From a virus: a stretch of DNA of 43,378 nt. Position 1 is the first letter of the stretch, and each line of letters begins with the position of its first letter. A program made the position numbers and the translations under genes. This document shows positions 13,926-31,173 of the stretch, piece by piece. The stretch covers positions 1 through 43,378 of the IMG/VR virus record IMGVR_UViG_3300041402_000346; one strand, given 5' to 3'. The notes beneath the pieces are model-generated. The model made no database searches. It was not told the origin of the DNA and saw only the letters and a list, made by a program, of their open reading frames with translations.

Positions 13926-14942
13926 TCACCCAACCTGTTCCCATGAGAATTCTCGGATCCAAAGAACGTCGCCGCTCTCCTGGGCTGGCATCATGGTTGG
14001 CACGAACGCACCAAGAGTATCGATCGTCTCACCAGTCGTCGCCACTTGCCAGTCCGGCTCCGCACCGGCGTCATTCCAAACCTTGGCCTTGATAACACGG
14101 GTATAAAAGTCGATTTGAAAGGCGCAGCGAATCCAATCGCTTACGTCATCGAGCGAGACCTTTGCAATACTGTCGGACTCGAAGAATCCACCAACGTTTG
14201 GGTCCACGACATAGGCGTCAACGCTGAGGGCACACCATGTGCCTGCAAAGGCGAAAATCGCCCCTGCCCCAGTCGGGGCATCGCCCATCTCCACCCAGTC
14301 CCTCAAGGCGAGCGACGGGGTGCCAAGCGTGTCCCACTTCACGAGAATCTCGAACCGATAGATTCCGGTCGGGCCGATCCCGTGGAGGCCCGACGTGTCC
14401 CCGAGAGTAGACAATCGAGTCTGTGCGCTCCCAAAAAGCGGGCTATGCGTGGTCAATGCTACGGTGACAGGCTCGCCATTGTAGAGCACGCTCGTACGCC
14501 TGAACATAAAGTTGCCACCGGAATCCTCGCCCAGCCAAAACTCGCTCCCGTCAATTTCGATCGAAGACAAATTCTCTCCATCCGACGGGATCCATACTTG
14601 CCCCGGCGCCGACTTCGTGATGTCTTGGAGAAGAATGAACTGGCCCTTGTCGAGCGTTCGCGTCTTGCCGTCTCCGTCCGTAGCTTCAACATCGAAATAG
14701 AACGCCCCGGCTGCATCCGCGTTCTCCGGAGTGAGCACGAAGTTGACCCGACCATCTGCACTCGCCCCCTGGATAACCCCTGCCGACTGGAACATCTGCT
14801 GAACCGTATCGGGTGGATTCGCTTCGGCGTTCACGGTCAGGAGGAAGGACTCCCCGTCAATGTCACGGATCGAGCCGTCGGGGTTCTTGACCACGATCCC
14901 TACCGGAGAGGTGTCGCCGCGGTAGCGGATAACGTTGCTCAT
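13926..14942 (-). CDS. Tail/baseplate fibre protein A (BppU-like head, lectin-like C-terminus)
   Basis: A 338-residue protein. Residues 1-110 (RYRGDTSPVGIVVKNPDGS, then FLLTVNAEANPPDT, FYFDVEATDGDGKTRT and DITKSAP) have the layout of the N-terminal attachment domain of BppU-type baseplate proteins. The next protein upstream carries a paralogous head. The C-terminal part (IYRFEILVKWD, WIRCAFQIDFYTRVIKAKVWNDAGAEPDW) matches a concanavalin/LamG-like beta sandwich. The likely role is host-surface binding at the tail tip. It starts two bases from the stop of its paralogue. Confidence 0.65.
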   Translation of the reverse strand: MSNVIRYRGDTSPVGIVVKNPDGSIRDIDGESFLLTVNAEANPPDTVQQMFQSAGVIQGASADGRVNFVLTPENADAAGAFYFDVEATDGDGKTRTLDKGQFILLQDITKSAPGQVWIPSDGENLSSIEIDGSEFWLGEDSGGNFMFRRTSVLYNGEPVTVALTTHSPLFGSAQTRLSTLGDTSGLHGIGPTGIYRFEILVKWDTLGTPSLALRDWVEMGDAPTGAGAIFAFAGTWCALSVDAYVVDPNVGGFFESDSIAKVSLDDVSDWIRCAFQIDFYTRVIKAKVWNDAGAEPDWQVATTGETIDTLGAFVPTMMPAQESGDVLWIREFSWEQVG

Positions 14943-14943
14943 C

Positions 14944-16041
14944 TCAGACTCCGTAATTCGAGGTCAGCACCTCGCCGCCTGGGAACGGATCAGTGATCGG
15001 ACCGAGCCAAACCTGCGTTAGCATTATGTGTTCGTCAACGTTGTTCTTGTTGCCGACCCAGACCTCAATCTGTTGCGCCGCCATCTCCGCGTTGTCGAAC
15101 TCGTACGGGAAATTGAATTCAAGCCACGGGGTAGCCTGCCCACCCTGGTCTCCAGCCCAATGACCTACGATCCTGTCTTTGTATACCTTGGCAATGAAAT
15201 CGACCTCGCACTGATATAGGTAGTACCCGATCTGTGGAAACCCCTCCGCCCATTCTTGGGTGTGCTCGTATAGATCCTGCCCGACCCAACTCGGGTAGGG
15301 TTGTACCCACGTCCAGTGATGCCCGGAGTCGAACACCGCAGCCACGAGCATCCTATGGTCATCGAACTCCGGATACCATTGATCCTCCCCAATGTGGAAG
15401 TAGAGCGACACATTTCCATCGACACCCCAACCAGGGTTTCGGAGGACCGCCTCAAATCGAAACCTCCCGGAGTCGAGATTGATGCCGAGATCAGCCACGT
15501 CAAGAGTTATGTAGACGCTTCCATAATACGTGGGGTTCCCGGCCTTGGCCCAAACTTCCTTAGTGAATGGAGTGAGTGGTTCCTTGCCATCGACCGGGAT
15601 CAGTCGCACCTCCTCGTCTTCGCCCCACGTATCGAAAACGTTCGTCGGTGGGGAGCCGATCGCCTCTCCCTCGACGTTCCACACCATCGCAGGCCCGTAG
15701 AATCCCTCCTTCGTGATGTCCTGCTCGACGACATACTCGCCGTGATCGACTGTCCGAATCAAGCCAGTCGGGCCGGTCATCTGCGCGTCGTGGTAGAACG
15801 TCCCGAGGATGTCAGCCGCTGCCGGGTCAACAGGAAATCGAACTGATCCGAGCGATGCATTGACAATCTCCCCGACCGACTGGAATACCTGGTCAGAGGC
15901 ATCGGTCGGAGACGCGTTTCCGTTGACGGTGAAGAGGAACGTGGACCCGCCCGGAATCGGGAACGGCCGTCCAGTGTCCTCGTCCGTGAGATAGAGGATG
16001 ATCGGGAACGTGTCACCCCGGTGTCTGCTAATGTTTGGCAC
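14944..16041 (-). CDS. Tail/baseplate fibre protein B, paralogous head with different tip
   Basis: A 365-residue protein from a GTG, overlapping the repeat-fibre gene by 14 bases. Residues 1-115 (RHRGDTFPIILYLTDEDTG, FLFTVNGNASPTD, FYHDAQMTGPTGLIRT, DITKEGF) align by eye with the head of fibre protein A: RGDT near residue 8, FxxTVN-A-P, and DITK at the end. The C-terminal 250 residues are Trp/Tyr/Asp-rich (WVQPYPSWVGQDLYEH, VDFIAKVYKDRIVGHWAGDQ) and lectin-like, and differ from protein A. Two exchangeable tips on one attachment module is the likely arrangement. Confidence 0.6.
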   Translation of the reverse strand: MPNISRHRGDTFPIILYLTDEDTGRPFPIPGGSTFLFTVNGNASPTDASDQVFQSVGEIVNASLGSVRFPVDPAAADILGTFYHDAQMTGPTGLIRTVDHGEYVVEQDITKEGFYGPAMVWNVEGEAIGSPPTNVFDTWGEDEEVRLIPVDGKEPLTPFTKEVWAKAGNPTYYGSVYITLDVADLGINLDSGRFRFEAVLRNPGWGVDGNVSLYFHIGEDQWYPEFDDHRMLVAAVFDSGHHWTWVQPYPSWVGQDLYEHTQEWAEGFPQIGYYLYQCEVDFIAKVYKDRIVGHWAGDQGGQATPWLEFNFPYEFDNAEMAAQQIEVWVGNKNNVDEHIMLTQVWLGPITDPFPGGEVLTSNYGV

Positions 16042-18217
16042 TCAGTCCTCCAATCACTGTAGAGGTCGGCCCCTTAAGAATCTCGACCGACCCCGCGCTA
16101 TCGTACCGCGCCCCCATGTTGCTGACGTAGACCGGGATCGCGGTCACCGTCGGATTGACGCTGGCCGAGATCGAGGCGGCAGTAGCTGCCGGAATCGCCG
16201 TGGTCCCGAGTCCGATCTGTACGTTGACGCCGACGCTAACAGACGCAGCGGTAGCGGCCTGAATAGCGACCGGAGAAATGATTGTCGGATTGACTCCGGT
16301 AGAGACGCTTGCGGCAGTAGCCGCCGGGATTCTCGTACTCGCATTGATTGCCGGACTCACGCCGGTTGAAGTGGATGCCGCCGTCGCGACTGCGATGCTC
16401 CTGGCCGCGACGATTGCCGGGTTAACCCCGGCGGATATCGAGGCGGCAGTCGCCTGGACTCCGGTCGCTGTCCGCACCGCCGGATTCACCCCGGTGCTCG
16501 TGGAGCTCGCAGTCGCTGCCGCAATTCGCGTGGCTGCGTTGACGGTTGGATTCACTCCTGTAGAAACCGAAGCAGCCGTCTCGGCAGCGATGGCGGAAGG
16601 AGCACCGATAGTCGGATTGACCCCGACGCTCACACTGGACGCGACTGCCGCCTGGACCTGAGTCGATGCGTTGATTCCTGGATTGACTGCCGCACTCGTC
16701 GTGGTGCTGACCGCCGCGCCAATCGCAGTCGCCTCGTTTACGGTTGGGTTGATGCCGAGGGAGATCGAGGTCGCCGTGTCGCTGGCGATAACCACGGCCC
16801 CGGTGTATCCGATGGTCGGGTTCACCCCGGCCGATGTTGACGCAGCCGGTGCCACCGAGATCTTCGTCGCAGCGTTGACGGCAGGATTGACGCCAGCCGA
16901 GATGCTCGCCGCTGTGTCTGCGGCGACAGTGACAGCCGCGTTGACTGCCGGGTTGGTGCCCGCTGAGATCGAGGTCGCCACCGCGCCCGCTATGCGAGTC
17001 GAGACGTTGACGTTTGGATTGATGCCTGTCGAGGTAGAGGTTGCCGTGCTCGCCGGGATGATCGTCGCGCCTTCGTAGACGATGGTCGGGTTAACGCCGG
17101 CCGAGACCGACGCCGCCGTTGCCTGGATGCCGGTCGCCGCGTTGATGTTCGGTCCTGCGCCTGGGTAGTCAGTGCCGACCACCTTGAGATCGTTGGTGTC
17201 GAGAGCGTGGTAGGTCGTGAATCCGGTTTCGGTCTGCCACTGCGTTTCTGTCTCCGATATCAACTCGTCGCCGTTAACGATTATCTTTATCAACGAACCG
17301 ACAGCCCGGATCTCAACCTCGTAGAAAACATCATGGACGAACACACCAGGGACGTCTAAGCCGATTGTAAAGCTGGAGCCGCCCACCAGACGAACTGCCC
17401 GCAAGCCCCCGGTGTTCAGGATGTAGGCATAGATACAATTGCTGGCATCGACAACCCTAATCCGAAACTGGAGGTAATTACCGTCTTCGAAAGTGAACGA
17501 CCCGGTGGCGCTGCAATCGGAAGGCAGCGTGCCCTCGGTCGAACCGCTTCCTGTTGGTGGTCCCCAACTGAAGTATTCGGTCTGGATAGTTCCGCTCGAC
17601 GCCGACTCCGCCGTAGCTGCCGTGATAACCGTCCCGGTCTCAGCTACGACACTCGGATCAACTCCGGCTGAGACAGAGGTCGCGACCGCCGCGCTGACTG
17701 CCGCCGCTGCGTTGACGTTCGGGTTCGTGCCAGCCGATGCTGAGGTCGCGGTGTCGGCTTGGACTCTTGTGCTCTGATTGATTGCCGGGTTGACTCCTGC
17801 CGATGCCGTCGTCGCAGTCGTCGCCGTGATCGTGGTGGCCGCCACGACAGCGGGGTTCACCGCAGCCGATACGCTTGCCGCTGTCGCTGCGGAGATGACC
17901 GTTGCCGCGTTGATCGTCGGAGCGATGCCGGCGGAAACGGAGACCGCTACCGCTGCCGCGATCTTGAGCGCAGCGTTGATGACCGGGCCGACCCCGGCCG
18001 AGGTGGATGCGGCAACGTCTGCGGCTATGCCGACCGCGGCGTTCAGGTTGGCGTTGATGCCGGTGGATGTGGAGGCGGCAGTGTCGGCAGCGATGATCGT
18101 CCCTGCCGGTGCCGCTTCCTTGTCGGCTGTCTCTCGCAGCCAACCATCCTTCGCTGCGGCACCGCCGTCCTTGTCGGCGGTACTCCGCAGCCAACCATCC
18201 TTGGGCAACACTGCCAT
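16028..18217 (-). CDS. Giant Ala/Ser/Thr-rich repeat fibre protein with inserted lectin-like domain
   Basis: A 729-residue protein. Residues 5-32 hold two copies of KDGWLR-x-TADK. From about residue 43 to 695 about 24 units of roughly 22 residues follow, each near TAASVSAGVNPxINAATxI, with AAS-S-GVNP as core. Between units eight and nine (about residues 214-352, DNA 17160-17577) a beta-sandwich domain is inserted (SATGSFTFEDGNYLQFRIRV, FYEVEIRAVGSLIKIIVNGD), resembling LamG-type carbohydrate-binding domains. The periodic hydrophobics suit a beta-solenoid or repeat shaft. The final 34 residues are unique. It lies among tail-fibre genes, so a long fibre or adhesin is likely. The family is not one I recognise. 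Confidence 0.7.
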   Translation of the reverse strand: MAVLPKDGWLRSTADKDGGAAAKDGWLRETADKEAAPAGTIIAADTAASTSTGINANLNAAVGIAADVAASTSAGVGPVINAALKIAAAVAVSVSAGIAPTINAATVISAATAASVSAAVNPAVVAATTITATTATTASAGVNPAINQSTRVQADTATSASAGTNPNVNAAAAVSAAVATSVSAGVDPSVVAETGTVITAATAESASSGTIQTEYFSWGPPTGSGSTEGTLPSDCSATGSFTFEDGNYLQFRIRVVDASNCIYAYILNTGGLRAVRLVGGSSFTIGLDVPGVFVHDVFYEVEIRAVGSLIKIIVNGDELISETETQWQTETGFTTYHALDTNDLKVVGTDYPGAGPNINAATGIQATAASVSAGVNPTIVYEGATIIPASTATSTSTGINPNVNVSTRIAGAVATSISAGTNPAVNAAVTVAADTAASISAGVNPAVNAATKISVAPAASTSAGVNPTIGYTGAVVIASDTATSISLGINPTVNEATAIGAAVSTTTSAAVNPGINASTQVQAAVASSVSVGVNPTIGAPSAIAAETAASVSTGVNPTVNAATRIAAATASSTSTGVNPAVRTATGVQATAASISAGVNPAIVAARSIAVATAASTSTGVSPAINASTRIPAATAASVSTGVNPTIISPVAIQAATAASVSVGVNVQIGLGTTAIPAATAASISASVNPTVTAIPVYVSNMGARYDSAGSVEILKGPTSTVIGGLSAKH
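16133..18091 (-). repeat. Tandem 66-base coding repeats (22-residue units), about 24 copies
   Basis: DNA repeats of about 66 bases inside the fibre gene. Units are diverged but keep the core encoding GVNP or GINP about every 22 codons. They split into a block of eight units (right side, about 17580-18091) and a block of about 16 (about 16133-17155), with the lectin-like insert between. A few units are one or two codons longer or shorter. Such arrays can gain or lose units by recombination. Confidence 0.75.
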
Positions 18218-18921
18218 TATGGAAGCACTCCGTTAACGATCTCGGTGATGTCCATGACGTCCGGGCTGTCAGCCTTGTAGAACGCGATCACGAAGTCCTG
18301 AACCTCGCTCGGCACGATGAACTGATACACGCCGGTTGAGCTATGGCTCGTCACTTGATCGGCCACCTCCCACACCGTGCCCGATGTCACCTTGAGCAAG
18401 AAACACTCGCACGATCCGAGGACGACCCCATCCTTGTCTCGGCTGATGCCGTTGATCTCTGGACCGTCCCAGTCCATGTCGATCTCGACTTCGCTGACCT
18501 TCGACTTCGCCCCGCCATCGGCGGCGAGACGAAGGCTGAACGAACCACTGTCATCGTATAATTCCGCAAGCAAAGCCCCCGACAACACATGCTCGACCCA
18601 TCCCTCCGAATCATACGCTTCGGAGACTGCATTCGTTGGCGACACGCTGTTGGCATCGGTGTACGGGTAGATGGAATTATTCCCAGGAGTCATTGCCTCC
18701 TCGCAGTAGATGCGAATACTGAGCGAGTTGACGAGACTCGGAGCCACCCCAACAGTGACCTTTAAGTTGATCGTACCCTCTTTCAACTCATCGCAACTGG
18801 TCGTCAGCACACCGTTGGTCATGCAGTCGGTGATGACTACATCGGGCGTTCCGTCGTCTGCCGTTTCGTCGGTACAGACCCACGATTGGACGTAGGAGAT
18901 GAGATCAACTACATACGCCAT
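18217..18921 (-). CDS. Tail-associated beta-sandwich protein
   Basis: A 234-residue protein. The N-terminal 160 residues are beta-rich (EGTINLKVTVGVAPSLVNSL, SIRIYCEEAM, SGSFSLRLAADGG, VSEVEIDMDWDGPEI). The C-terminal part (GISRDKDGVVLGSCECFLLK, then STGVYQFIVPSE) has the strand-turn pattern of carboxypeptidase regulatory-like (transthyretin-type) domains, in which G-V-D-G-x-P-x-x-A-x-V-x-L is followed by D-x-x-GxYxF. The stop overlaps the start of the repeat-fibre gene. It may cap or decorate the fibre; the role is inferred from the location. Confidence 0.5.
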   Translation of the reverse strand: MAYVVDLISYVQSWVCTDETADDGTPDVVITDCMTNGVLTTSCDELKEGTINLKVTVGVAPSLVNSLSIRIYCEEAMTPGNNSIYPYTDANSVSPTNAVSEAYDSEGWVEHVLSGALLAELYDDSGSFSLRLAADGGAKSKVSEVEIDMDWDGPEINGISRDKDGVVLGSCECFLLKVTSGTVWEVADQVTSHSSTGVYQFIVPSEVQDFVIAFYKADSPDVMDITEIVNGVLP

Positions 18922-19351: not shown

Positions 19352-19789
19352 CTAGCTCACGGTGTGGGTGTAGACGACCCCGCCGGTCCACTCGATGCTG
19401 AGATCGCCAGCAACGTTGCCAACTGGTCCGCCAAGCTCGACGTAACCGAGTGCGGCGTCGGTCACACTGTTGTACACAATGGCCCAGTAGCCATCGGCGA
19501 ATCCGGCCCCGTTCTGGCTGATGACGACATCGTCCGCGGTGAGCGATGCGACGCCATCCACCTCGTCCCACGAGGTAGTTGTGAGCGTCTCGCCGTCCGG
19601 CGTGTACCCGGTGCCAGACACCTCATCGCCGACGAAATCGCTCCACGTCGGGGTCGCCGTGGCGGCGGGTGGTTCCCCAGAAGTGTTGTCGATGATCCCG
19701 ACCTTGATCGCGTCGCTGTCAAGGTCCCACTCTTCCTTGAGCGGAGCCAATGCGAACTCCTCGAACAGTGTGAAATCTCCAAGTGCCAT
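19352..19789 (-). CDS. Virion-associated beta protein, tandem paralogue 1
   Basis: A 145-residue protein starting MALGDFTLFEEFALAPLKEE, behind TAGGAGGAAAGC. The blocks IKVGIIDNTSGEP, WSDFVGDEVSGTGYTPDGETL and ASLTADDVVISQN are repeated in the next gene upstream. WSDFVxxEVSGTGYxxxGxTL is a phrase I recognise from many small phage structural-module proteins of unknown role. The tandem arrangement suggests a local duplication followed by divergence. Confidence 0.6.
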   Translation of the reverse strand: MALGDFTLFEEFALAPLKEEWDLDSDAIKVGIIDNTSGEPPAATATPTWSDFVGDEVSGTGYTPDGETLTTTSWDEVDGVASLTADDVVISQNGAGFADGYWAIVYNSVTDAALGYVELGGPVGNVAGDLSIEWTGGVVYTHTVS

Positions 19790-19826
19790 GCTTTCCTCCT
19801 AGTCGGTCGATCGTTTTTCTAATCCC

Positions 19827-20297
19827 CTAAGTCACCGGGGTATCCCAAGTCAATACGTTTGCCGGCCACTCGGCGACGACGCCAGCGTCCCACTCGAAAT
19901 CAACATCAGCGGCCTGCTCGGAGACCGGCCCGCCCATGTCGATGAAACCGATCGCCTCGTCGTTGCCCGCAGAACTGTTGTACAGAATCCCTTGGAAGCC
20001 ATCGAGGAACCCGCTCGCATGCAACGTGATGTTCACGTCGTCGGCGGTGAGGGTGCAGATCCCAGCGACGATGGCGAGGACGACCGTGGTCAGCGTCTCG
20101 CCGTTCGCGGTGTAGTTGCCGGTGGAGACGACCTCGTTTGCGACATAGTCTGCCCACCGGGGCGTAGCATCATCTGCTTCAGCGGGGGTGGTATCGTCGA
20201 TGATGCCGAGCTTGAGAGTGGCGGTCGAGAGATTGTGGACCGCGCTCATCGCGTCCTTCATGAACTCCTGAAACAGTGTTACTTGGCCTCTAGCCAT
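19827..20297 (-). CDS. Virion-associated beta protein, tandem paralogue 2
   Basis: A 156-residue protein; the ATG at 20297 is used because CAGGAGGCACTG precedes it. A longer in-frame extension lies inside the amidase gene and is rejected. LKLGIIDDTTPAE, WADYVANEVVSTGNYTANGE and CTLTADDVNITLHASGF align with its neighbour. The EVSTGNY segment has one extra residue relative to EVSGTGY. It directly follows the amidase gene: the two share the base at 20297. Confidence 0.6.
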   Translation of the reverse strand: MARGQVTLFQEFMKDAMSAVHNLSTATLKLGIIDDTTPAEADDATPRWADYVANEVVSTGNYTANGETLTTVVLAIVAGICTLTADDVNITLHASGFLDGFQGILYNSSAGNDEAIGFIDMGGPVSEQAADVDFEWDAGVVAEWPANVLTWDTPVT

Positions 20298-20848
20298 CAG
20301 TGCCTCCTGTTCACGCCACTGACAATGGCACCAGCCATCCTCAGATTCCATCCTACATCACGAAGCCACTGTTCTTCAATCGAATTTGAGATGAACGCGA
20401 CCTCGACGAGCACAGCAGCCATACGAGACTGGGTCAGAACGACGAATCCGGCTTCCTTGTCGCTATCTCCGTCGGTCTTGTCGAAGCGCGGCGCCAGCCT
20501 CGGGAAGGCCTCGCCGATGGACTCGAACAGCCTCTCCGCGATCGGATCCGCGGCAGTCTGCCCGACCGAGGTCCACACCTCGTAGCCGTGCGCGGCTGGA
20601 TTCGAAAACGCGTTGCAGTGGATCGAAAGGAGCAGGTCGGCGAAAGCGACATTCGCTATCTCACATCGGCCGACGAGGGAAACGAACTTGTCGTCCGACC
20701 GGGTGCAGATGACCTCGTGGTCGGAGGCGAGCAGCCCGCGCCGGACCCACTTCGCGATCTCCAGCGCGGCATCCGACTCCTTCAGCCCGAGCGGACCGAC
20801 CGCGCCGGAGTCCTCGCCGCCATGGCCTGGGTCGAGGCAGATGATCAT
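20297..20848 (-). CDS. N-acetylmuramoyl-L-alanine amidase (endolysin)
   Basis: A 183-residue protein of the Amidase_3 (zinc) type. Zinc ligands are H9 in LDPGHGGEDSGAVG, E24 in LKESD and H77 in LLLSIHCNAF; the catalytic Glu is E149 in VLVEVAFISN. The length is that of a bare catalytic domain, with no cell-wall-binding module and no signal peptide. The enzyme cuts the bond between MurNAc and L-Ala of the stem peptide. It would need the holin, and lies some 7 kb ahead of the holin-spanin group, with fibre genes between. The stop overlaps its downstream gene. Confidence 0.85.
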   Translation of the reverse strand: MIICLDPGHGGEDSGAVGPLGLKESDAALEIAKWVRRGLLASDHEVICTRSDDKFVSLVGRCEIANVAFADLLLSIHCNAFSNPAAHGYEVWTSVGQTAADPIAERLFESIGEAFPRLAPRFDKTDGDSDKEAGFVVLTQSRMAAVLVEVAFISNSIEEQWLRDVGWNLRMAGAIVSGVNRRH

Positions 20849-21899: not shown

Positions 21900-23114
21900 T
21901 CAAAACCCCTGTGCCGCTACGAAGTCCATTATCAAATAGGTGCCGATGATGCCCCTCGTGTACGTTTCCAGATCGCGATTCTGCTTGAACCACACGGTCT
22001 GCTGCTGACCGGTGATGTGATCCACGTTGCCGATCCCGAGCACGATGTCTCCTTGCTCTGGAGGCCACATCCAGAGGTACAGCTTCGCCGGATCGTTGCC
22101 AGCCAAGATGTATGCCTCGGAGTAGGTCCACCACTGAGCGTCCACGATCTGCTGTCGGAGGAACTGGGCCCCCCTCGACCTGTGGAAGCCGTCATCGATC
22201 CCGGCGTCCAGCGACCAATACACATTGTCGAACTCGAGATCCTGGGTCCTGGTGGTCTTGAGCAGGTTGTGCCGGTGCGGATAGATCGGAGGGCGGTTGA
22301 AATATGCGTGGGTGAAGATCTCCTTCGTCAAGAAGAATTCCCACCACGAGACGTAGTAATAGTAGGCGGTGACGGTAACGACCCACCGCCAATTCGCCGG
22401 TCGCACATAGATCCTGTAGCTCGAGTCATTCAGGATCGAGCAGAGTTGATCCTTGATCATGCCTGCCGCGTCGAGGTCCAGAGGATGGCCTTGCGAATCG
22501 ACGAGGTCGTACCATTCTGGGCGGCGGAGATCAAACGGGGCGAAGATCGGATTGTAGTCTCCGACAAGCTTGTAGTGCGGCCCTGAGTGGGCATTTTGGG
22601 TGATCACCACCCGGTTGAGCAGGTCGCAGTTGTGGCCGTCCCGTCCGCCGACCTCGTTGCGAAGCGGGAGGCGCAGCCAAGTTGTCGGGTCGTCAGACCC
22701 CGCAGCAACCTCGATCTCCTTCGATGTCAGCCAGTCAGTCGCCCGCGCATCGTCAACCGAAGCCCCCGGATCGTAGAGGGTCGGCGTCACGACCTCTGCG
22801 GTCGCCGCAGGCACTGGGCTGAAATCCCCAGAGTAATCATCCCAGTTGTAGAGCGTGAACTTCGGGCCACCATAGTCGCCGCGGTGGCGGTCGGTGTAGT
22901 CCATCCACATGCGCCAGGGGAAGCCCTCCGGCCACGGGCGCAGGAATCCACTGAATGGAGTGTCCACCAGGAGGTCGTTGATGTCATCCTGCCGCTCGGT
23001 CGGGAACTGGCGTTCCATGTCGAGTTCGCGGAAGTAAGCCGCGTCCATCCCCGGAGTGTCGTCCAGGGGATCGATCACGAGCGTCGTCCCGGCGTCGAAC
23101 ATCTCAAGCCACAT
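21900..23114 (-). CDS. Large Trp/Tyr-rich tail-tip protein
   Basis: A 404-residue protein from the ATG at 23114, which shares a base with the upstream stop (TGATG); the in-frame region further upstream is a shadow. It is beta-rich and very rich in Trp, Tyr and Asp (WEFFLTKEIFTHAYFNRPPI, VTVTAYYYYVSW, WWTYSEAYILAGND), with repeated exposed aromatic patches typical of carbohydrate-contacting tail proteins. No enzymatic motif is seen. By gene order it is a tail-tip or baseplate component. Confidence 0.5.
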   Translation of the reverse strand: MWLEMFDAGTTLVIDPLDDTPGMDAAYFRELDMERQFPTERQDDINDLLVDTPFSGFLRPWPEGFPWRMWMDYTDRHRGDYGGPKFTLYNWDDYSGDFSPVPAATAEVVTPTLYDPGASVDDARATDWLTSKEIEVAAGSDDPTTWLRLPLRNEVGGRDGHNCDLLNRVVITQNAHSGPHYKLVGDYNPIFAPFDLRRPEWYDLVDSQGHPLDLDAAGMIKDQLCSILNDSSYRIYVRPANWRWVVTVTAYYYYVSWWEFFLTKEIFTHAYFNRPPIYPHRHNLLKTTRTQDLEFDNVYWSLDAGIDDGFHRSRGAQFLRQQIVDAQWWTYSEAYILAGNDPAKLYLWMWPPEQGDIVLGIGNVDHITGQQQTVWFKQNRDLETYTRGIIGTYLIMDFVAAQGF

Positions 23115-24844
23115 CAGTTCCGCGTCCTCTCCTGCAAGGACAGTTGCGTCCGCTGACTCGTCCAGTTTCCTTCCTTGGTGCGTGCGAACTTCATCTTGAA
23201 CCCGACAAGCATCCAATCGTCGTTCTGTGTCTCCTGCCCGATGTGGAGCGCGTTCGCGTACACGTCCCACTCGATCACCGGCAACTCGACGGCCTGACCA
23301 TACTCGAGACCCAGCAGCGGCATAAGTACGTCCATGTCGATGCGGAAATCGGGCTCGTTTTGAGCGAAGACGCGCGGCGCGATTTCATCCATCACCTCTT
23401 GGAGATCGCCCTCCTCCGGATCGAGGGGAACGTCGAACTCTTCGACCTCGCCATAGTCCTCGTCGGGGATCTCTGGATCTACGGGCGGCGTGGCGTCGGC
23501 ACCGCGCTCGTTCTCGAGCATCCCCATTCGATATTGATGATGCTCGGGCCCTGAGTAGATGATCGTCTCGTGGTTCGAGTCCGGCGACTCAGCCTCGGAG
23601 ATGATTGCCGTGGCGTAGTACTCGTATTCGGCGCCATCAACCACGTCCTGGTCAAAGAACTCACCCTGTGCGAGGTCGTACCGCATCGCGACGTTAGCGT
23701 TGTCCACCGTCGCGATGAGTTGGAAGGTCGTCTCGTACGGCTCCTCCGGCGGGGTGTCGTCACCCGGCTCGGTGTAGCTCGTCTGAGAGGGCAGGGTGGA
23801 GGCAGGCGTGCCGTCGAACTCCTCGACGACGGTGTCGCCGATGATTGTCCGCTCTTCGGGGAGCGACGGATCCGCGACCCACCGATCGTAGAGGTCTGGG
23901 TCGCCGGTCCTCGGCGGGTCAGTCACCTTCTTCCGGTAGACGTTGTACTTGTCGGCGGGGATATCGATCCGTCCCCGCTCTCCGAAGTAGGGATTGCGGA
24001 TGGTCGAGCCGCCGCCCCTGATCTCGACATTGATGCCCTCGGCGCGGTTCTGCAGTTTGATCTTTGGAGGATCCACAGGGTACGGATATTGATAGGCGAA
24101 CCCGGTCTTCTTGATGTCTCGAGGGCCTTTGATCTGCACGTCCTGCGGCTTGAGCTTGTTCTTGACGATCGTCCAGATCTGCCACCGGTCGAGTTGCTCG
24201 ACGACCACGTCGTGCTCGACGATGACCTCGTCCACCCACTTCACCATCTGCGGTGCGCCAGCCTGCTCGACGAAGGACGAGTTCTTGTTGCCCTCGGACC
24301 AGATCCTGCCGGTCTGGAGAATCAGATTCTGCTTGTTGCCGGGGATCATCCCGGCGTCGGTCGCCTTCTGTTTGGCCTCGGCTGAGGCGTCTTCGTCTGG
24401 CTCAACCGGGAGATCGTAGACGCAATAGGCCGAGATCAGCCTGGTGCGCCCGAGGTTGTCGCCGTCGGTCCACGGCGTGAATGTCCAGTAGATGACCTTG
24501 ACGGTCTCAACCACGCGGAGCCCGCGCCCGATCCCAGGGAGGTAGCCTCCCCATTTCGTCTCGCGGTTGTACTCCTGCGTCGGACCGTTGACGACATCAT
24601 AGGACCAGTGCTCTTCGTCTTCCCTCATGATCGTGCCGTACTGGTTGGTGAGCGTCTTGTGGCTCTCGATCAGAATCGAGTTGTCGCCGCCGGAGGAACG
24701 CCCCTTCGATGATCCTTGCCCTGGTGCCTTGTAGTAGCCTTCTTGGATCGCCATCGAGCCGAGGGACTCCGTCCATTCGTTCGCCGTCATCGGAACGTCG
24801 ATGACTACCGGATCGGGCCAGTAGTTGGCTACCAACGCCATCAC
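23114..24844 (-). CDS. Tail-tip protein with fibronectin-like segment
   Basis: A 576-residue protein. Residues 1-230 contain YWPDPVVIDVP and long charged beta segments (VIYWTFTPWTDGDN). A region near 300-430 (DKYNVYRKKV, then GAEYEYYATAIISEAESPDS) has the Y-x-VYR and EYxYxATAI features of fibronectin type III modules. The end (WMLVGFKMKFARTKEGNWTS) is a beta tail I associate with central tail proteins of siphophages. The stop shares a base with the next start. It likely bridges the hub and host-contacting proteins. Confidence 0.5.
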   Translation of the reverse strand: MMALVANYWPDPVVIDVPMTANEWTESLGSMAIQEGYYKAPGQGSSKGRSSGGDNSILIESHKTLTNQYGTIMREDEEHWSYDVVNGPTQEYNRETKWGGYLPGIGRGLRVVETVKVIYWTFTPWTDGDNLGRTRLISAYCVYDLPVEPDEDASAEAKQKATDAGMIPGNKQNLILQTGRIWSEGNKNSSFVEQAGAPQMVKWVDEVIVEHDVVVEQLDRWQIWTIVKNKLKPQDVQIKGPRDIKKTGFAYQYPYPVDPPKIKLQNRAEGINVEIRGGGSTIRNPYFGERGRIDIPADKYNVYRKKVTDPPRTGDPDLYDRWVADPSLPEERTIIGDTVVEEFDGTPASTLPSQTSYTEPGDDTPPEEPYETTFQLIATVDNANVAMRYDLAQGEFFDQDVVDGAEYEYYATAIISEAESPDSNHETIIYSGPEHHQYRMGMLENERGADATPPVDPEIPDEDYGEVEEFDVPLDPEEGDLQEVMDEIAPRVFAQNEPDFRIDMDVLMPLLGLEYGQAVELPVIEWDVYANALHIGQETQNDDWMLVGFKMKFARTKEGNWTSQRTQLSLQERTRN

Positions 24845-25599
24845 TTCACCAGCACAATCACCCGGCGCACGCGCTTCGTGATGACGGGGGTTGCGTTCAA
24901 TTTATCGACTATGCCTGCAGGGATGATCAGCTTGTTGTGGGCACCCATGATCTCATCCTGTTTGTCGGCGATCACCAGCCTGTTCTGGGCCCGCAGGTAG
25001 TACCGGTGCGGGGCGTAGGGATCGGTCAGGCGCATGATCTCCTGCCAATAGGAGCTCTCCTTCGGAACGACGAATGCCTTGATTGGATAGTCTGGGATCG
25101 TGAGCGAGACGCGGATCCCGGCTGCTCGAGCGAGCTTCTGGACCGCGCTGTGCATCGTCGGAGTTCCGTGCCACACCCGGTAGAGTCCAACCTCTTTCCC
25201 GTAAGCCTCGATTGCCGTCACGACCTGCTCGTTCACCTTGCCCCAGCCGGGAACGAAGATGATGGTCTTGGTCGGTCCGCGCCGTTTCGCCAACCAGATC
25301 TTCTCGTAGCCCTCGGCGGTCACGGTCGGCACGGCACCCGCGCTCACATTCACGGCGCGCTTGCGGTCGTTCGGGATGATGCCGCTGCGGATCAGGATCT
25401 CCTGCCTCGGGTACGCTGGATCGTAGGACCCGAAGATGTCCCACCTGCTCGACTCATCAAAGTTGTGCCATGTGTTGAACTCAAGCACGAAGTGGCGGCT
25501 GACGGCGTCGTTTTGGTTGATGCTCACAGAGCGGACCCACGGGGTCACGTCTCGCTGATCCATGTAGACGATCACCACGAAATCCATGTATTGCGTCAT
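24841..25599 (-). CDS. Tail hub-like protein
   Basis: A 252-residue protein. VTPWVRSVSINQNDAVSRHF opens with the V-P-x-V-x-S-x-S motif common to tail-hub strands, then VLEFNTWHNFD and SRWDIFGSYDPAYPRQEILIR. The core (GYEKIWLAKRRGPTKTIIFVPG, then AVQKLARAAGIRVSLTIPDY, WQEIMRLTDPYAPHRYYLRA) fits the LysM-like or second domain of gpD/gp44-like hubs. The match is from pattern only. It overlaps its neighbours by four bases on both sides. Confidence 0.5.
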   Translation of the reverse strand: MTQYMDFVVIVYMDQRDVTPWVRSVSINQNDAVSRHFVLEFNTWHNFDESSRWDIFGSYDPAYPRQEILIRSGIIPNDRKRAVNVSAGAVPTVTAEGYEKIWLAKRRGPTKTIIFVPGWGKVNEQVVTAIEAYGKEVGLYRVWHGTPTMHSAVQKLARAAGIRVSLTIPDYPIKAFVVPKESSYWQEIMRLTDPYAPHRYYLRAQNRLVIADKQDEIMGAHNKLIIPAGIVDKLNATPVITKRVRRVIVLVK

Positions 25600-27611
25600 G
25601 AGAACGTCACCCCATGGTCGAGCAGCGTCTGGTAGGTGTTGTCGTCGATCGTGTTGACGAAGACCGACCCTTCTCGATTGACACCATACACGAGGAACAT
25701 CCCCGGCTGGTCATGGAGCTCGCGGATGGAGAGGATCGCAGCCCCCGGCAAGTCGTAGAAGAATCGCTCCGCAGCCAAGAGGAACCCAGGCTGGTCGTCG
25801 ATCCGGTGCCCCTGCAACAGGGCCTGCCCAATGTTGTCGTCAAGCCTGTAGCCCTCGGCGATCAGCGAGCCGATGTGATCGTCGAGCACCAGGAGGCCAG
25901 CGAGCAGCGATCCCGGCTGGTCGTCGATTTGGATGTGGCCTGCGATCCACCGAGCGTCGGCGTGGATCGCCTGCCCCTGGTCGATGACGTTCCATCTGTA
26001 ATTGTGGCCCATCGGCCACCACTGGGTCAGCGCGGTCCACTCCCATATCCCAGGCCCGTGCTCGTATGGCGTGATCGGAACCGTCCAGTACGCGCGCCCG
26101 TAGCCGTTCCGATACTTGCTGGCCTCGGCATCGAACGTGATCAATTCGATGGCGTTGCCCCAGTAGGTGAACGCGGCCGTGACCGTCTGGAAGTCACGGG
26201 CCATCCATCGCGCGCCGGTCCGCATGAACACGTCTGACCAGTCGGCCTCCTCGATGTATGGCTGGCCGGCGGCAGACCGCAACCACTCCCGGCCCCACAC
26301 GACGAGGGTCTGGTCGGCGACGACGTTCTCCACGCCGTGGACGGTGACCTTGAACTCCTCATCTCGAGCAGGCTCGAAGTACACCCTCAGGTTACTCACC
26401 TCCGGAGTCGAGGAGGAAGCGGTGGTCGCGAGTTCCACGCGGAACTCTAGCGTGTCCTTCGTCGCCCCGGCTCTCATGTCGTCCTCGTACTCGATGCCGG
26501 GAACGATCGCTCCGTTCGAAAGCGCAGTCCACGAGTCGGTGCTGCGCCACCGGCACTTCACCGCGGCTGTCGTGTTCGCTGGGATCACCTCATCCCACGT
26601 TACCTGTCCGTGCGAGTAGTGGTCAGTCGAGGACACGTCAACCGAGTCCTCCCAGGAGCCGGATGCGGCGTAGGCTGGCGGGATCGTCTCGACGCTGAAA
26701 TCGTCGTACAGGATATCTCGCGTGGTCGAGTCTGTCTGAGCGAACAGGCCAACGACGCCGGGGCCAGCGTGAGCCGAGTCACTGGCTACTTTCCAGGTGC
26801 CGGGTTCTGCGTCGCCATCCTTCCAGACCTTCGCCTGCAGCCAAGTGGTGGTCATCCTGAATCGGATCCAGATCCACTCGTCCTCAGCAGGTATGAATCC
26901 GAAGCTCTGAGAGTTGACGCCGAACGTAGTGCCGTCTCCGGTGAACCGCTTGAAGCTCAACCACTGGCTCCCGCGAGCGATGCTGGCCGTGTATCCCCTG
27001 AGCGCCGATCCGCTCCCCGTCAGGCGCAGGCACGGGCCTCCGGTCCCGACCGCGTCGGCGAATCGGATGCGGACCAGCGTCTCAACGTCCGAGACGCTCG
27101 GACCAGCATCCATCGACATGACGCATTTCCCGTTGTAGGTCTGATTCCGTCCGTGTTGCGAATCACCCGGCACGAGTTGCTGAACGTCCCAGCCGGTCCC
27201 TGTGGTCCTCGCCGTCCACCCGCTGCCGATGGGATTCTGCCCGAGCGTGTAGCCTTCGAAATCATCAACGGTCGGAGAGGTAATGAGGTTGATGGCGTCG
27301 CCGATTACCTCGGTGTCGGTGAACGTGCCGGTGAGGAAATCCGATCCCTCGTCGTAGTGGACATCCTTCTCGGCGGTGTTCAGGGCCTCGATGTTGACCT
27401 CGACGGAGTGACCGTGCGCCACCTCCTCGTCGTCTTGGTCAGGAGTCCAGCCCTTGATGTTGAGCACCTGCGCCTTGGAGCCAATCTTCGCACCAGGCAA
27501 CCGCCCACCGCCGCGCAGCACGCCGCACTCGATGAACGTCTGCCCGTTGATCGTGGCGCGCGGAGCATGCCCGCCGCCGCGCATCACCTCGCAAGAGATC
27601 GTGGTCGCCAC
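25596..27611 (-). CDS. Tail protein with lectin-like domain and 14-residue terminal repeats
   Basis: A 671-residue protein from GTG 27611. It opens with two similar short strands, CEVMRGGGHAPRATINGQTF and CGVLRGGGRLPGAKIGSKAQ. Residues about 110-310 form a LamG-like sandwich: DFEGYTLGQNPIGSGWTA, then WIWIRFRMTTTWLQAKVWKD with KVW-DGDAEP, and LYDDFSVE. The middle (DEEFKVTVHGVENVV, GRAYWTVPITPYEHGPGIWE) is beta-rich. Residues 562-645 are six 14-residue repeats (type IDDQPGSLLAGLLV). It is likely a tail-tip adhesin. It overlaps the hub-like gene by four bases. Confidence 0.6.
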   Translation of the reverse strand: MATTISCEVMRGGGHAPRATINGQTFIECGVLRGGGRLPGAKIGSKAQVLNIKGWTPDQDDEEVAHGHSVEVNIEALNTAEKDVHYDEGSDFLTGTFTDTEVIGDAINLITSPTVDDFEGYTLGQNPIGSGWTARTTGTGWDVQQLVPGDSQHGRNQTYNGKCVMSMDAGPSVSDVETLVRIRFADAVGTGGPCLRLTGSGSALRGYTASIARGSQWLSFKRFTGDGTTFGVNSQSFGFIPAEDEWIWIRFRMTTTWLQAKVWKDGDAEPGTWKVASDSAHAGPGVVGLFAQTDSTTRDILYDDFSVETIPPAYAASGSWEDSVDVSSTDHYSHGQVTWDEVIPANTTAAVKCRWRSTDSWTALSNGAIVPGIEYEDDMRAGATKDTLEFRVELATTASSSTPEVSNLRVYFEPARDEEFKVTVHGVENVVADQTLVVWGREWLRSAAGQPYIEEADWSDVFMRTGARWMARDFQTVTAAFTYWGNAIELITFDAEASKYRNGYGRAYWTVPITPYEHGPGIWEWTALTQWWPMGHNYRWNVIDQGQAIHADARWIAGHIQIDDQPGSLLAGLLVLDDHIGSLIAEGYRLDDNIGQALLQGHRIDDQPGFLLAAERFFYDLPGAAILSIRELHDQPGMFLVYGVNREGSVFVNTIDDNTYQTLLDHGVTFS
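25677..25928 (-). repeat. Six perfect-length 14-residue (42-base) coding repeats
   Basis: Six consecutive units of exactly 14 residues end the tail protein: IDDQPGSLLAGLLV, LDDHIGSLIAEGYR, LDDNIGQALLQGHR, IDDQPGFLLAAERF, FYDLPGAAILSIRE and LHDQPGMFLVYGVN. Each shows hydrophobic-x-D-[QHNL]-[PI]-G, then a short hydrophobic strand and a polar turn. No indel breaks the spacing across 252 bases. The regular period suggests a stack of short strand-turn units. Confidence 0.8.
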
Positions 27612-27620
27612 TCATCACTC

Positions 27621-29720
27621 CTACAGCAACCGTGCGTTGAATCGGAGCCTCTTCACTTCCTCGGTGGTCGTCACCTCGGCGACTGGTTTTGACCAGAACG
27701 AGGCCTGACCGGAGTCGATGACGGCGACGAGGCTTCCAGTCGGGTAGTCCTGGGTCAGCGCAACCGTCAGGTCGATGTACGACCCGGCCTGCACCGAGTC
27801 GATCTCTCGAGTCTCTGCAGTGTCCGGGTCCAGCGGGTTCTGGATGAACACGTCCTGCCCTGGCGACATCCCGTCAGTATCGAGGACCCACACCCGCGCC
27901 GGCACCCCCTCGCTCACGCCGGACGCCTGATCAACGGTAGAGAACACCGAGGCCGAGACATCTCGGATCGGCAAGGTGGTCCCGATTCTGGAGCCGGAAT
28001 TGTAGACGTTCGAGTTGGCCGTGAGCCCTGAAAGCTCGATCGCCCATGACTTGATCACGGAATCCCAGTAGTCGTCGAGGACATGCCCGGTGGTCGAGGT
28101 CCACTTCAAATAGATCCCGCCGGAGCCAGGAAGCAGGATGTCCGTGGTCGAACAATCAACCCCCGTCTCCTCCCAGGACGAGCCGCCGTTTATGCTCCAT
28201 GTGAAGGTGTTCGGTGTTCCGGTGCCATCGATCTTGGCCCGCAGGGTGTCGTTCCAGGCGCCGTTGAAATTCCCACTGATTGTGATGTCGTCCGAGCCGG
28301 TGCCGGAGAAGCTCGGCGTGCCGATGTCCGCCTCCTGCACCGATGCGATTGCGCCCTCGTTGATGTTCGTCTCGTCCATGATGAACGCCCTCGTGGCTAC
28401 CGGCCAGTTCGCCGGAATCACGCGGCGGGTCGGGATGAGCTTCGTGGTGGCACCGATCGTGGTCTGAGCGGTTGTGGTCTCACGCCGCCCGAGGCACGGA
28501 CGCCATCCCGCCGCATCGGGTGATCCCGCGTTGTCCCTGGTGATTTGGATCTGGTCGTTCGAGTCTGCGGCCCACCCTGAGTCGGTCGTCTGCCCACGAA
28601 CCCCCGTCTCGTAGTCGTCATCCAGCGCGGTGCCGGGTTGCCATGCCGCCGATGGGATGAGCAGCCCGCCGTCCGGTGCCGTGAAGTCCGAACCGACCGA
28701 TCCGCGCCACGTCGGATCAGCATCGATAGACGGATGCAGCGAGATCGCGTTGTCGCGATAGGCGACCGCCTTCACCTCAAACTGGGTGCTGCTGTAGAAA
28801 ATGATGTTGTATTTCTGCGACACCGCGTTGTCCACGAGGCCGACGTGGTCAAGCGTCGTCGATCCGACGCGAGTGATGGGCGTCGTGTACTCCGGGTGGT
28901 CGTCGAAAATTTCGACCTGTTGCGTCAAGGCCGAGAAGTTGCGGAAGTGCTCCTTCACCGCGGTGCCAGTCTGACCGGGCTCGACCGCCCCGAGGTAGTA
29001 CTCGTCGCCGGGGTCGTCGGTGACCGGCGAGGAAAGATCGAGATTCCCGCTCCCGTCATCATGGTAGAACTCGATCGGGAACAGGTACGCGAAGAACAGG
29101 TAGGGACGCTTCGTCTTGATGACCGACGGGTTCCAGTTGATCGACAGCCCGCCGTTCCCGGTACGGCAGACGATGTTGAAGAGGATCGGGGCGTTATCTC
29201 TCAGGGCCCGCTCGATGATCGAGGTCAGCGGCCAGTTGTTGCGCTCCTCGGTGCTGCTCGCATGATCGACGGTGAAGGTGTAGGCCGGAGTCCCTTCGCA
29301 GTCCTGGCCGCGGACGATGTGGTGCTTATCGAGATGCCACGTCAGGCCAGCCGACTTGTCGTAGTCGTAGTTCGTGGTGTCGCCCTGGTCCCACGCCCGC
29401 AGCATCCTGTAGATGTCGATGGGGTGGGAGCCGGCTGTCCCGAGATCGTAGTTCATCACATTCATCGCGCCCATGAGCAATATCGGGACCTGCCCGATCT
29501 TCGCCTTGACCTGCCCGATGTCAATCCAGGCGAGCATCTCGTGGTGCAGAGCATCTGCGTTGTAGTCGCCCATCTGCGGCTCGGCGAGTTGGTTCTCGGC
29601 ATCCGTCTCGGTCTGATCCAACGTGTCGCCCCATGGGCCGAATGGCGTGCGGTAGAGTTGCCGAGCACCATGCCAATCGGCGAACTCTGCGTCGGCTTGA
29701 CCCCAATCCCAAAATCGCAT
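27621..29720 (-). CDS. Large minor tail protein (tail tip)
   Basis: A 699-residue protein beginning MRFWDWGQADAEFADWHGAR, behind AGGGAGGCATC. Mixed beta modules follow: WHLDKHHIVRGQDCEGTPAY, then FFAYLFPIEFYHDDGSGNLD. A domain near residues 490-550 (DDITISGNFNGAWNDTLRAK, NTFTWSINGGSSWEE) is repeat-protein-like and ends with a domain near 620-690 (VWVLDTDGMSPGQDVFIQNP, GSYIDLTVALTQDYPTGSLV) typical of phage tail-tip proteins that sit on the distal tail. No enzyme motif is visible. The function is assigned by position and style. Confidence 0.5.
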   Translation of the reverse strand: MRFWDWGQADAEFADWHGARQLYRTPFGPWGDTLDQTETDAENQLAEPQMGDYNADALHHEMLAWIDIGQVKAKIGQVPILLMGAMNVMNYDLGTAGSHPIDIYRMLRAWDQGDTTNYDYDKSAGLTWHLDKHHIVRGQDCEGTPAYTFTVDHASSTEERNNWPLTSIIERALRDNAPILFNIVCRTGNGGLSINWNPSVIKTKRPYLFFAYLFPIEFYHDDGSGNLDLSSPVTDDPGDEYYLGAVEPGQTGTAVKEHFRNFSALTQQVEIFDDHPEYTTPITRVGSTTLDHVGLVDNAVSQKYNIIFYSSTQFEVKAVAYRDNAISLHPSIDADPTWRGSVGSDFTAPDGGLLIPSAAWQPGTALDDDYETGVRGQTTDSGWAADSNDQIQITRDNAGSPDAAGWRPCLGRRETTTAQTTIGATTKLIPTRRVIPANWPVATRAFIMDETNINEGAIASVQEADIGTPSFSGTGSDDITISGNFNGAWNDTLRAKIDGTGTPNTFTWSINGGSSWEETGVDCSTTDILLPGSGGIYLKWTSTTGHVLDDYWDSVIKSWAIELSGLTANSNVYNSGSRIGTTLPIRDVSASVFSTVDQASGVSEGVPARVWVLDTDGMSPGQDVFIQNPLDPDTAETREIDSVQAGSYIDLTVALTQDYPTGSLVAVIDSGQASFWSKPVAEVTTTEEVKRLRFNARLL

Positions 29721-29729
29721 GATGCCTCC

Positions 29730-30737
29730 CTAAATCGTCAACCCGCGCGCCCGAAGATTGAAGAGCTTCCGATCGCCCGGAGTCGCCGACACCGGAACGT
29801 TGAGCCGCGTCCAGAAGTAGCAGGTGCCGGACGCTGTGATCGTGCCGGTCGTCTGACCAAGCTCAGTCAGCGTGAGCGGCCCGGACTGCCAAGCTCCAGG
29901 CGAGCCGGAGGCGTCCGGCGCGAACTCCACCCACGCGTGCCCCTCGCGGACGAAGAACGAGAGCGTCTTCGAGGTCGGGTCGCCGCCGTCGGCGAAGATG
30001 ATCCCGAGCCCGAGGAACCCGTCCACGCCGTCGATGTACCCGTTGCCCGCGCCGTGCTGGTAGAGTTCCGCGCCGTCGAGCTTCGCATCCTCGATGGTCT
30101 TGGTCCCACCAACGAGCACATCGGCGGTGTCCGGACTGCCGCTCTGGAAGTCGGCGAAGGTGATGTCCTTGTCCGCCGGCACCGCGCTGGCGTGGCGCGC
30201 CGGATCGGTGTGGTTCTGCAGCTTCGTGATGTACGGCTGGGCCTCGTCCTCGAGATAGAAGCCGGGGAGTGCGTAGACCTCGGTGTCCGCGCTGTCCTCT
30301 GAGCCGACGTTGACGGCGACGTTGCGCCGTTGGGCCGAGATGGTGTCGGCCTGGATCACTCCGATGTTGAATCGGTCCGAGGTCCCGCCGCCGGAGTCCA
30401 TCAGCGCGCCGATGGAAAGCTTGCCGGTCCAGCCGTTCGCCAGGGACGAGGAGAGCTTGATCCTGGTGCCGGGGACCACCCCGTAGTTCCACGTCGAGGA
30501 GTCTGCGGTGACGCCGATGCCGGTGCCGATGACCTCGTTCTTCGGATCGTCGGCGGTGACGTTGACGGTCGAGGACGAGGTCGCAGCGATGGTGTAGACA
30601 TCGGAGATCGCCTCACCATCACCGAGCCACTCTGCAGCGACGATCGGAGTGTTGATCGTGTTCTCCCACCGGAACAGCAGGTTGGCGTCCGGGTCCGCCG
30701 GCGAGGCCGCGTCACGGAAGATAATTTCTGAACTCAT
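29730..30737 (-). CDS. Beta-rich tail protein (distal or tip-associated)
   Basis: A 335-residue protein. It starts MSSEIIFRDAASPADPDANL and repeats a beta pattern rich in Asp, Gly, Ser and Thr (TVNVTADDPKNEVIGTGIGV, SGTCYFWTRLNVPVSATPGD). Such Gly/Asp-rich proteins often form one ring or arm of the tail tip. Nothing here is catalytic. It is followed by the gene directly downstream of the tape measure, so by gene order it falls between the tape measure and the tail-tip proteins. Confidence 0.5.
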   Translation of the reverse strand: MSSEIIFRDAASPADPDANLLFRWENTINTPIVAAEWLGDGEAISDVYTIAATSSSTVNVTADDPKNEVIGTGIGVTADSSTWNYGVVPGTRIKLSSSLANGWTGKLSIGALMDSGGGTSDRFNIGVIQADTISAQRRNVAVNVGSEDSADTEVYALPGFYLEDEAQPYITKLQNHTDPARHASAVPADKDITFADFQSGSPDTADVLVGGTKTIEDAKLDGAELYQHGAGNGYIDGVDGFLGLGIIFADGGDPTSKTLSFFVREGHAWVEFAPDASGSPGAWQSGPLTLTELGQTTGTITASGTCYFWTRLNVPVSATPGDRKLFNLRARGLTI

Positions 30738-30740
30738 CGC

Positions 30741-31172
30741 TTACTCCAGTCTCAGCAAAAAGAGTGTGACCTTGTAGGCCGTCAGAACCGGGGTCAGGGT
30801 ACCACCTGTCTTGTCGCTCTCTGGGTACGGTCCGTTGTATGGCTGGAACTCATGCATGTCACGCGGTCCGAACGCGCAGGTGATCGTGGTCGCGTCTCCA
30901 GGCTTCAGCTTCACGACAATCGGCCCGGTCGCGCTCATGAGCGTTTCGATGACGGCGATCTGTGCGGCGGTCAACTGCTCCATGTGGATCTCGAGGAACG
31001 CCTTGTCCTGGCCGACGGCGAAATCTACGACGCACGGGTCGTTGGTGATGGCGAGCGCGAACGCGGTCGTCGGCCCGCCTTCGCGGTGCCGCTCCTTGAT
31101 GATCGGCGGCGCGTCGAACAGCACCTGCGTCGAGTCTCGCTCGATGCCGACTTCACCAATTGCAAACGCCAT
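30741..31172 (-). CDS. Tail protein following the tape measure (distal-tail type)
   Basis: A 143-residue protein. The start MAFAIGEVGIERDS at 31172 follows the tape-measure stop by one base (TGACATG); the longer in-frame extension is an Arg/Ser-rich shadow. VVKLKPGDATTITCAFGPRD and GTLTPVLTAYKVTLFLLRLE are strand-rich. The gene directly after the tape measure usually encodes the distal tail protein; this protein is shorter than most Dit proteins, and could be a reduced variant. Confidence 0.5.
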   Translation of the reverse strand: MAFAIGEVGIERDSTQVLFDAPPIIKERHREGGPTTAFALAITNDPCVVDFAVGQDKAFLEIHMEQLTAAQIAVIETLMSATGPIVVKLKPGDATTITCAFGPRDMHEFQPYNGPYPESDKTGGTLTPVLTAYKVTLFLLRLE

Positions 31173-31173
31173 G

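What the first reader, a model, noticed from the sequence alone, without database searches (positions are those of the whole stretch)
16028..18217. A 729-residue fibre made of about 24 copies of a 22-residue Ala/Ser/Thr-GVNP repeat, split by a lectin-like domain
The repeat (core AAS-S-AGVNP-INAAT-I) does not match collagen-like, peptidoglycan-binding or known fibre repeats that I recall. Units are near-constant in length, and a LamG-like domain sits between units eight and nine as if inserted into the array. The protein starts with two copies of KDGWLR-TADK, an additional short duplication. Alternating small and hydrophobic residues suggest a beta-solenoid or strand-stack shaft. Its place at the end of the tail genes makes it a candidate novel phage fibre or adhesin architecture, with copy number that could vary between isolates.
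Basis: partly seen in the sequence, partly recalled or inferred. Interest (0 to 1): 0.78.

Follow-up and report, generated by a model that had tools for sequence, protein, structure and literature searches.

The report
Repeat-built phage tail appendage protein
A tailed phage carries a gene for a long, probably rod-like tail protein built from about 23 copies of a 22-amino-acid repeat found nowhere else we looked, and related phages carry differently built repeat proteins at the same gene position.

Summary
The ORF window:16028-18217 (-), 729 aa, holds a strongly periodic 22-residue array (24 profile matches: 21 full units, one split unit, two partial ends), a 144-aa domain (residues 211-354) inserted inside unit 8, and a duplicated KDGWLRxTADK N-terminus. 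It is not an assembly artefact: the longest exact DNA repeat is 17 nt, and units are about 52% identical with near-random synonymous sites. It is therefore also unlikely to change copy number by slippage.
No relative of the repeat was found in Pfam, PHROGs, PDB, 50,697 phages, IMG/VR patterns or about 800 bacterial genomes. A fold of six units (four-row self-alignment) gave a β-only, solenoid-like model of moderate confidence (pLDDT 74, pTM 0.70) with no significant structural match.
The new evidence is positional. In relatives, the gene directly upstream of a phrog_1084 gene is often another short-period repeat protein of unrelated sequence: 22-residue HxH (two phages), 20-residue, 14-residue. 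Five of 7 slot ORFs are repetitive, against 2 of 204 elsewhere (partly post hoc).
Best reading: an exchangeable virion tail-appendage shaft that displays a concanavalin-A-like side domain. Location in the virion, oligomeric state and ligand are inferred.

The parts
16028..18217 (-). 729-aa repeat protein (the finding)
   Evidence: open frame with ATG at the upstream stop codon and overlapping the next gene; periodicity
18119..18202 (-). N-terminal duplication KDGWLRSTADK / KDGWLRETADK (residues 6-16 and 23-33)
   Evidence: sequence; the 17-nt exact DNA repeat lies here
17588..18100 (-). first part of the array, residues 40-210: half unit, 7 full units, first 6 residues of split unit 8
   Evidence: profile matches
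17156..17587 (-). inserted domain, residues 211-354, probably concanavalin-A-like
   Evidence: interrupts unit 8 in register; Pfam 3keto-disac_hyd E = 0.018, sub-threshold
16145..17155 (-). second part of the array, residues 355-691: rest of unit 8, 14 full units, one partial
   Evidence: profile matches
16031..16144 (-). C-terminal tail, residues 692-729, TAIPVYVSNMGARYDSAG...
   Evidence: 18-residue similarity to the C-terminus of the HxH-repeat slot protein of L166
14944..16041 (-). downstream neighbour, phrog_1084 N-terminal domain plus a different C-terminal domain; GTG start overlaps the array gene by 14 nt
   Evidence: defines the slot
13926..14942 (-). second phrog_1084 gene
18217..18921 (-). 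upstream 234-aa gene, no relatives found, stop overlaps the array gene start
20297..20848 (-). endolysin, Amidase_3
   Evidence: Pfam 2.5e-41
21900..33576 (-). tail module shared with relatives L150, L152, L154, L155, from the tape measure gene down

Best explanation
The gene most likely encodes a structural tail appendage of a siphophage-like virus: a rigid rod or spacer whose shaft is a stack of about 23 beta-structured 22-residue units, with a jelly-roll (concanavalin-A-like) domain inserted in the NP turn of unit 8 so that it projects sideways while the shaft continues, a short duplicated N-terminal segment that probably anchors it, and a short C-terminal cap. It occupies a variable appendage slot just before a phrog_1084 gene, in which related phages use repeat shafts of unrelated sequence. 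Likely mechanism: the shaft spaces a sugar-binding side domain, or the neighbouring phrog_1084 proteins, away from the tail to meet the cell surface; exchange of the whole shaft gene changes reach and surface chemistry. Shown: the repeat, the insert's place, the gene order and the repeat proteins at the same place in relatives. Inferred: presence in the virion, fold, oligomeric state, binding and role in adsorption.
For: Periodicity and in-register insertion. Protein pattern kept while DNA diverged to near-random synonymous sites, so it is a maintained protein. Alternation at 180 degrees above every shuffle in both array parts. Six-unit model with only strands, pLDDT 74, pTM 0.70. Same-strand cluster with tape measure, tail, endolysin and phrog_1084 genes, with overlapping start and stop codons. 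At the same place in sister phages: 850 aa with 27 HxH motifs exactly 22 residues apart (G002), 1630 aa of 20-residue repeats also interrupted by a longer non-repeat stretch (G004), 430 aa with 15 HxH/HxQ motifs 22 apart (L166), 261 aa of 14-residue repeats (L172). 5 of 7 slot ORFs repetitive against 2 of 204 others, hypergeometric P = 1.3e-7.
Against: No homologue of known function and no significant PDB or viral fold match. The model rests on one good model of five (74, 65, 60, 41, 41) and a four-row self-alignment; the full-length fold is unusable (pLDDT 37). Two of the five slot proteins suggested the slot idea, so the P value is partly circular; leaving out the window, G002 and G004, 2 of 4 slot ORFs remain, roughly P = 0.002 by hand. 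phrog_1084 itself has no known function. No virion proteomics.
Confidence: 0.6

Rival explanations
1. The array is a low-complexity, Ala/Ser/Thr-rich flexible or disordered linker (possibly a site for sugar attachment) that merely tethers domains.
For: A, S, T, V, G make up 65% of residues and charges are few; the single-sequence fold is of very low confidence.
Against: Strict 22-residue register with nearly invariant S3, G5, N7, P8 and hydrophobic 10 and 16 over old, diverged copies, alternation above shuffles, a turn-located insertion that keeps register, and a beta-only model point to order.
Confidence: 0.15
2. The repeat is a histidine-free, diverged form of the 22-residue HxH repeat found in the same slot of relatives, so that all are one homologous family.
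For: Same period; the best cyclic shift against each of three HxH sets puts SxS on HxH and N on N; an 18-residue C-terminal similarity between P0001 and L166 (P = 0.002 by shuffles).
Against: Column-permutation p = 0.09-0.87; hhalign P = 0.69; the HxH profile does not match P0001 (score -0.6); Smith-Waterman on profiles at the null.
Confidence: 0.12
3. A virion or secreted adhesin or decoration protein not on the tail, for example a capsid fibre, that only lies near tail genes.
For: No direct evidence places it on the tail; G004's repeat protein weakly matches a PHROG filed under head and packaging, virion structural protein (E = 9.4e-5).
Against: The cluster contains tail and lysis genes, while head genes lie at the other end.
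Confidence: 0.12
4. Assembly artefact or chance open frame.
For: Unusual composition; open mirror frames on the other strand.
Against: No long exact DNA repeat that could be misassembled, periodicity far above shuffles, correct strand and overlapping gene junctions, GC3 like its neighbours 18217-18921 and 14944-16041.
Confidence: 0.01

Closest known systems
HxH 22-residue repeat protein of Microcystis phage Mae-JY22 (XAI95683.1) and of L160 and L166
   Same: 22-residue period; L160 and L166 occupy the same gene slot; in Mae-JY22 a LamG-like domain is joined to the array in one open frame
   Different: no detectable sequence homology of the repeat itself; His pairs instead of Ser pairs; the LamG-like domain precedes the array instead of splitting it
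Single-chain beta-solenoids (ice-binding proteins, tailspikes, pectinase-like)
   Same: the predicted six-unit model is all strands; these are among the nearest, though non-significant, PDB matches
   Different: no match better than E = 2.3; best TM-scores about 0.4; no sequence relation
T4 gp5 triple-stranded beta-helix (PMC4576200)
   Same: phage rod made of short beta repeats
   Different: 8-residue VxGxxxxx repeat (PMC4576200) against 22 residues here; no sequence match; trimer not testable here
T4 gp37 / Alteromonas phage R22Y HxH fibres (PMC11705849)
   Same: phage fibres with spaced paired residues; three R22Y intervals are also 22
   Different: R22Y units (HTHSIEDINGL...) are a different sequence type and do not match the slot HxH profile; no His pairs in the window protein
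Concanavalin-A-like / 3-keto-disaccharide hydrolase-like domains (PF06439)
   Same: insert residues 253-331 weakly align
   Different: below the curated cut-off; no PDB sequence match

Membership tests
22-residue HxH repeat family (L160, L166, Mae-JY22) | 22-residue period | tested here: met
22-residue HxH repeat family (L160, L166, Mae-JY22) | HxH in every unit | tested here: not met
   SxS at the best-fitting place; profile score -0.6
22-residue HxH repeat family (L160, L166, Mae-JY22) | profile similarity beyond chance | tested here: inconclusive
   best shift aligns SxS with HxH, p = 0.09-0.87
Beta-solenoid | regular coils of beta-strands | tested here: inconclusive
   moderate-confidence model with recurrent strands, one good model of five; no fold match
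Triple beta-spiral / triple-stranded beta-helix fibres | trimer with interdigitated chains | not testable with these tools
   monomer prediction only
T4 gp5-type triple-stranded beta-helix | 8-residue VxGxxxxx repeat (PMC4576200) | tested here: not met
   self-score 0.90 at lag 22 against -0.06 at lag 8
Concanavalin-A-like (LamG) lectin domain, for the insert | match to a curated domain model | tested here: inconclusive
   PF06439 E = 0.018, 15.5 bits against a cut-off of 26.8
Known Pfam/PHROG/NCBIfam fibre repeat | profile match | tested here: not met
   (only a weak NCBIfam serine-rich match of 17.5 bits against a cut-off of 650)

The most novel reading that the evidence does not exclude
This phage group has a dedicated shaft slot in which whole repeat families of unrelated sequence and chemistry (22-residue SxSxGVNP, 22-residue HxH, 20-residue GSIAAQSxVxGDL, 14-residue ADAVxLQWDIRQ) replace one another, and the SxSxGVNP array folds as a beta-rod not seen in solved structures, with domains plugged into its turns.
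Probability: 0.3. Interest if true: 0.65.

Novelty: new variant of a known kind. Interest (0 to 1): 0.47.

Why it matters
Phage fibres and spacers set how far a particle reaches and which surfaces it meets. A repeat unit without known relatives, in a slot where related phages use other repeat designs, gives a natural series of interchangeable protein rods whose structures could be solved and compared. It would show how a virus changes shaft design without changing the rest of its tail. The short, regular units would also be simple building blocks for designed rods.

Tried and rejected
Pattern scans for three consecutive [GA][VIT]NP units gave 29 viral loci and at least 117 genome loci. The profile rejected nearly all; those inspected (L011, L074) are open frames through arrays of an identical repeat with differing spacers at 66-nt spacing, as in CRISPR arrays. 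A stricter two-unit pattern found none. tblastn against phages found none, but BLAST's low-complexity filter may mask the array. Search with the neighbouring 234-aa gene found none. Profile search of 396 and 400 genomes from the phyla of two arbitrary genomes (a Cellulomonas and a Chloroflexi MAG) found none; the host is unknown, so this says little (positive control). Overlapping shifted copies of the array could not be used as a self-alignment, because MAFFT aligned identical parts; disjoint segments were used instead. The R22Y link suggested by 22-residue spacing was dropped because its sequence type differs. Homology of the 20-residue and HxH arrays to this array was tested and not shown.

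Full report
What was checked. The frame 16028-18217 (-) is open, starts with ATG at the stop codon of the upstream 234-aa gene and overlaps the GTG start of the downstream gene by 14 nt. Its protein is strongly periodic: mean BLOSUM62 self-score 0.90 at lag 22, then 0.54 at 44 and 0.33 at 66, against a shuffled maximum of -0.07. The consensus is S-[VTI]-S-[AT]-G-[VI]-N-P-[TA]-[IV]-N-A-A-T-x-[IV]-x-A-A-[TV]-A-[AT]. A profile of the unit matches 24 times: a leading half, seven full units, the second half of a split unit, fourteen full units and a trailing partial.

The insertion. In fact SASSGT (205-210) is the first quarter of unit 8 and GPNINAATGIQATAA (355-369) its remainder. The 144 residues between them sit at the G[V/T]|NP step, which the structure model shows as a turn between strands. 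A domain inserted in a turn, with the array continuing in register, is what one expects of a folded repeat rod with a side domain. The insert has 19 aromatic or His residues against 2 in the whole array. Alone it matches Pfam 3keto-disac_hyd, a concanavalin-A-like fold, at E = 0.018, below the curated cut-off. Lectin-like is therefore a plausible label and no more.

Not an artefact, and not fast-evolving. Tandem Repeats Finder sees no array in the DNA. Units share 52% of bases on average and 67% at most; where two units share a four-fold degenerate residue, the third base agrees 34% of the time against 29% by chance. The longest exact direct repeat in the gene is 17 nt. The array is old and its protein pattern has been kept while the DNA drifted. 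Misassembly and slippage-driven copy change are both unlikely.

Search for relatives. No match in Pfam, PHROGs or NCBIfam above cut-offs, in the PDB by sequence, in 50,697 phage records by tblastn, or in IMG/VR by peptide or DNA patterns. Pattern matches were rejected by the profile, and those inspected look like CRISPR arrays. A profile of the array found only its own genome among about 820 genomes and records. Caveats: low-complexity filtering in BLAST, exact-match patterns, and no metagenome scan.

The phage and its kin. The window is a virus record with portal, protease, capsid, tail and tape measure genes on the minus strand and an amidase endolysin. A near-identical 14.8-kb contig (L148) stops before the array, near window position 21,160. 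Four further contigs share the tail module at 28-71% identity in the shared tail genes. None has this repeat.

The slot. The gene after the array begins with a phrog_1084 domain. In G002 the gene just before the phrog_1084 gene encodes 850 aa with 27 HxH motifs spaced exactly 22 residues. In G004 it encodes 1630 aa of a 20-residue repeat, GSIAAQSTVTGDLKVTRALA, also broken by longer non-repeat stretches. A scan with the phrog_1084 domain gave 25 loci. Among ORFs of 150 aa or more in 24 of these loci and the window (L165, whose slot region repeats that of L164, left out), 7 end within -20 to +60 nt of the phrog_1084 start. Five of these 7 are strongly repetitive (window, G002, G004, L166, L172) against 2 of 204 other ORFs, P = 1.3e-7. 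G002 and G004 suggested the idea; without them and the window, 2 of 4 slot ORFs remain, about P = 0.002 (my estimate by hand, not run). Many loci have other genes before phrog_1084, so the slot does not always hold a repeat protein.

Are the slot repeats one family? The HxH sets of G002, L166 and Mae-JY22 are clearly one family. The window repeat is not shown to belong: the best cyclic shift aligns SxS with HxH each time, but column permutations give p = 0.09-0.87, hhalign P = 0.69, and the HxH profile does not match. An 18-residue similarity between the C-terminal tails of the window protein and L166 (TxIPVYV...SAG; shuffle P = 0.002, chosen by eye) is a lead.

Structure. Full-length prediction without alignment is not usable (pLDDT 37). 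Six units with three other disjoint stretches of the same array as alignment gave pLDDT 74 (about 82 over the first four units), pTM 0.70, and per unit one long strand region and a short one with turns at NP and at NA[AS]. Only one of five models was good. No PDB or viral structure matched at E <= 0.001; several of the nearest PDB rows are beta-solenoids such as ice-binding proteins and a tailspike. So: probably a beta-rod; class and oligomeric state open.

How it probably works. Inference from the anatomy: N-terminal duplicated segment as anchor, array as spacer rod, inserted jelly roll as side-facing binding domain, C-terminal cap, made together with phrog_1084 proteins that carry different C-terminal domains and may be the receptor-binding partners. 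Replacement of the whole shaft gene between related phages would change reach and surface character.

Verdict. It is a new variant of a known kind, a repetitive phage appendage protein, with a repeat that has no relative in the collections searched.

Noticed in passing
L160:5169-7721: 850-aa slot protein with 27 HxH motifs spaced exactly 22 residues; a candidate metal-binding phage rod
   Followed up: partly
L158:6672-11564: 1630-aa slot protein made of dozens of 20-residue repeats (GSIAAQSTVTGDLKVTRALA) with longer non-repeat stretches between them; weak match to phrog_10356 virion structural protein
   Followed up: partly
L172:5148-5933: 261-aa slot protein of 14-residue ADAVxLQWDIRQ repeats
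   Followed up: no
window 568-1383 and 10506-11201 (+): radical SAM gene and a QueC homologue (Pfam 7e-16): possible 7-deazaguanine DNA modification in this phage
   Followed up: no
window 13926-16041 (-): two adjacent genes with the same phrog_1084 N-terminal domain and different C-terminal domains, as in exchangeable receptor-binding proteins
   Followed up: no
window 19352-20351 (-): two adjacent phrog_644 paralogues; in the relatives only one was seen in the stretch held
   Followed up: no
L150:12119-14146, C-terminal part: repeats of the type NFxGSxLV in the 675-aa tail protein, another short-period array in the same phage group
   Followed up: no
L074:2054-3762 and L011:2235-2516: open frames through what look like CRISPR arrays (identical repeat, differing spacers), found by the 66-nt spaced pattern
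   Followed up: partly
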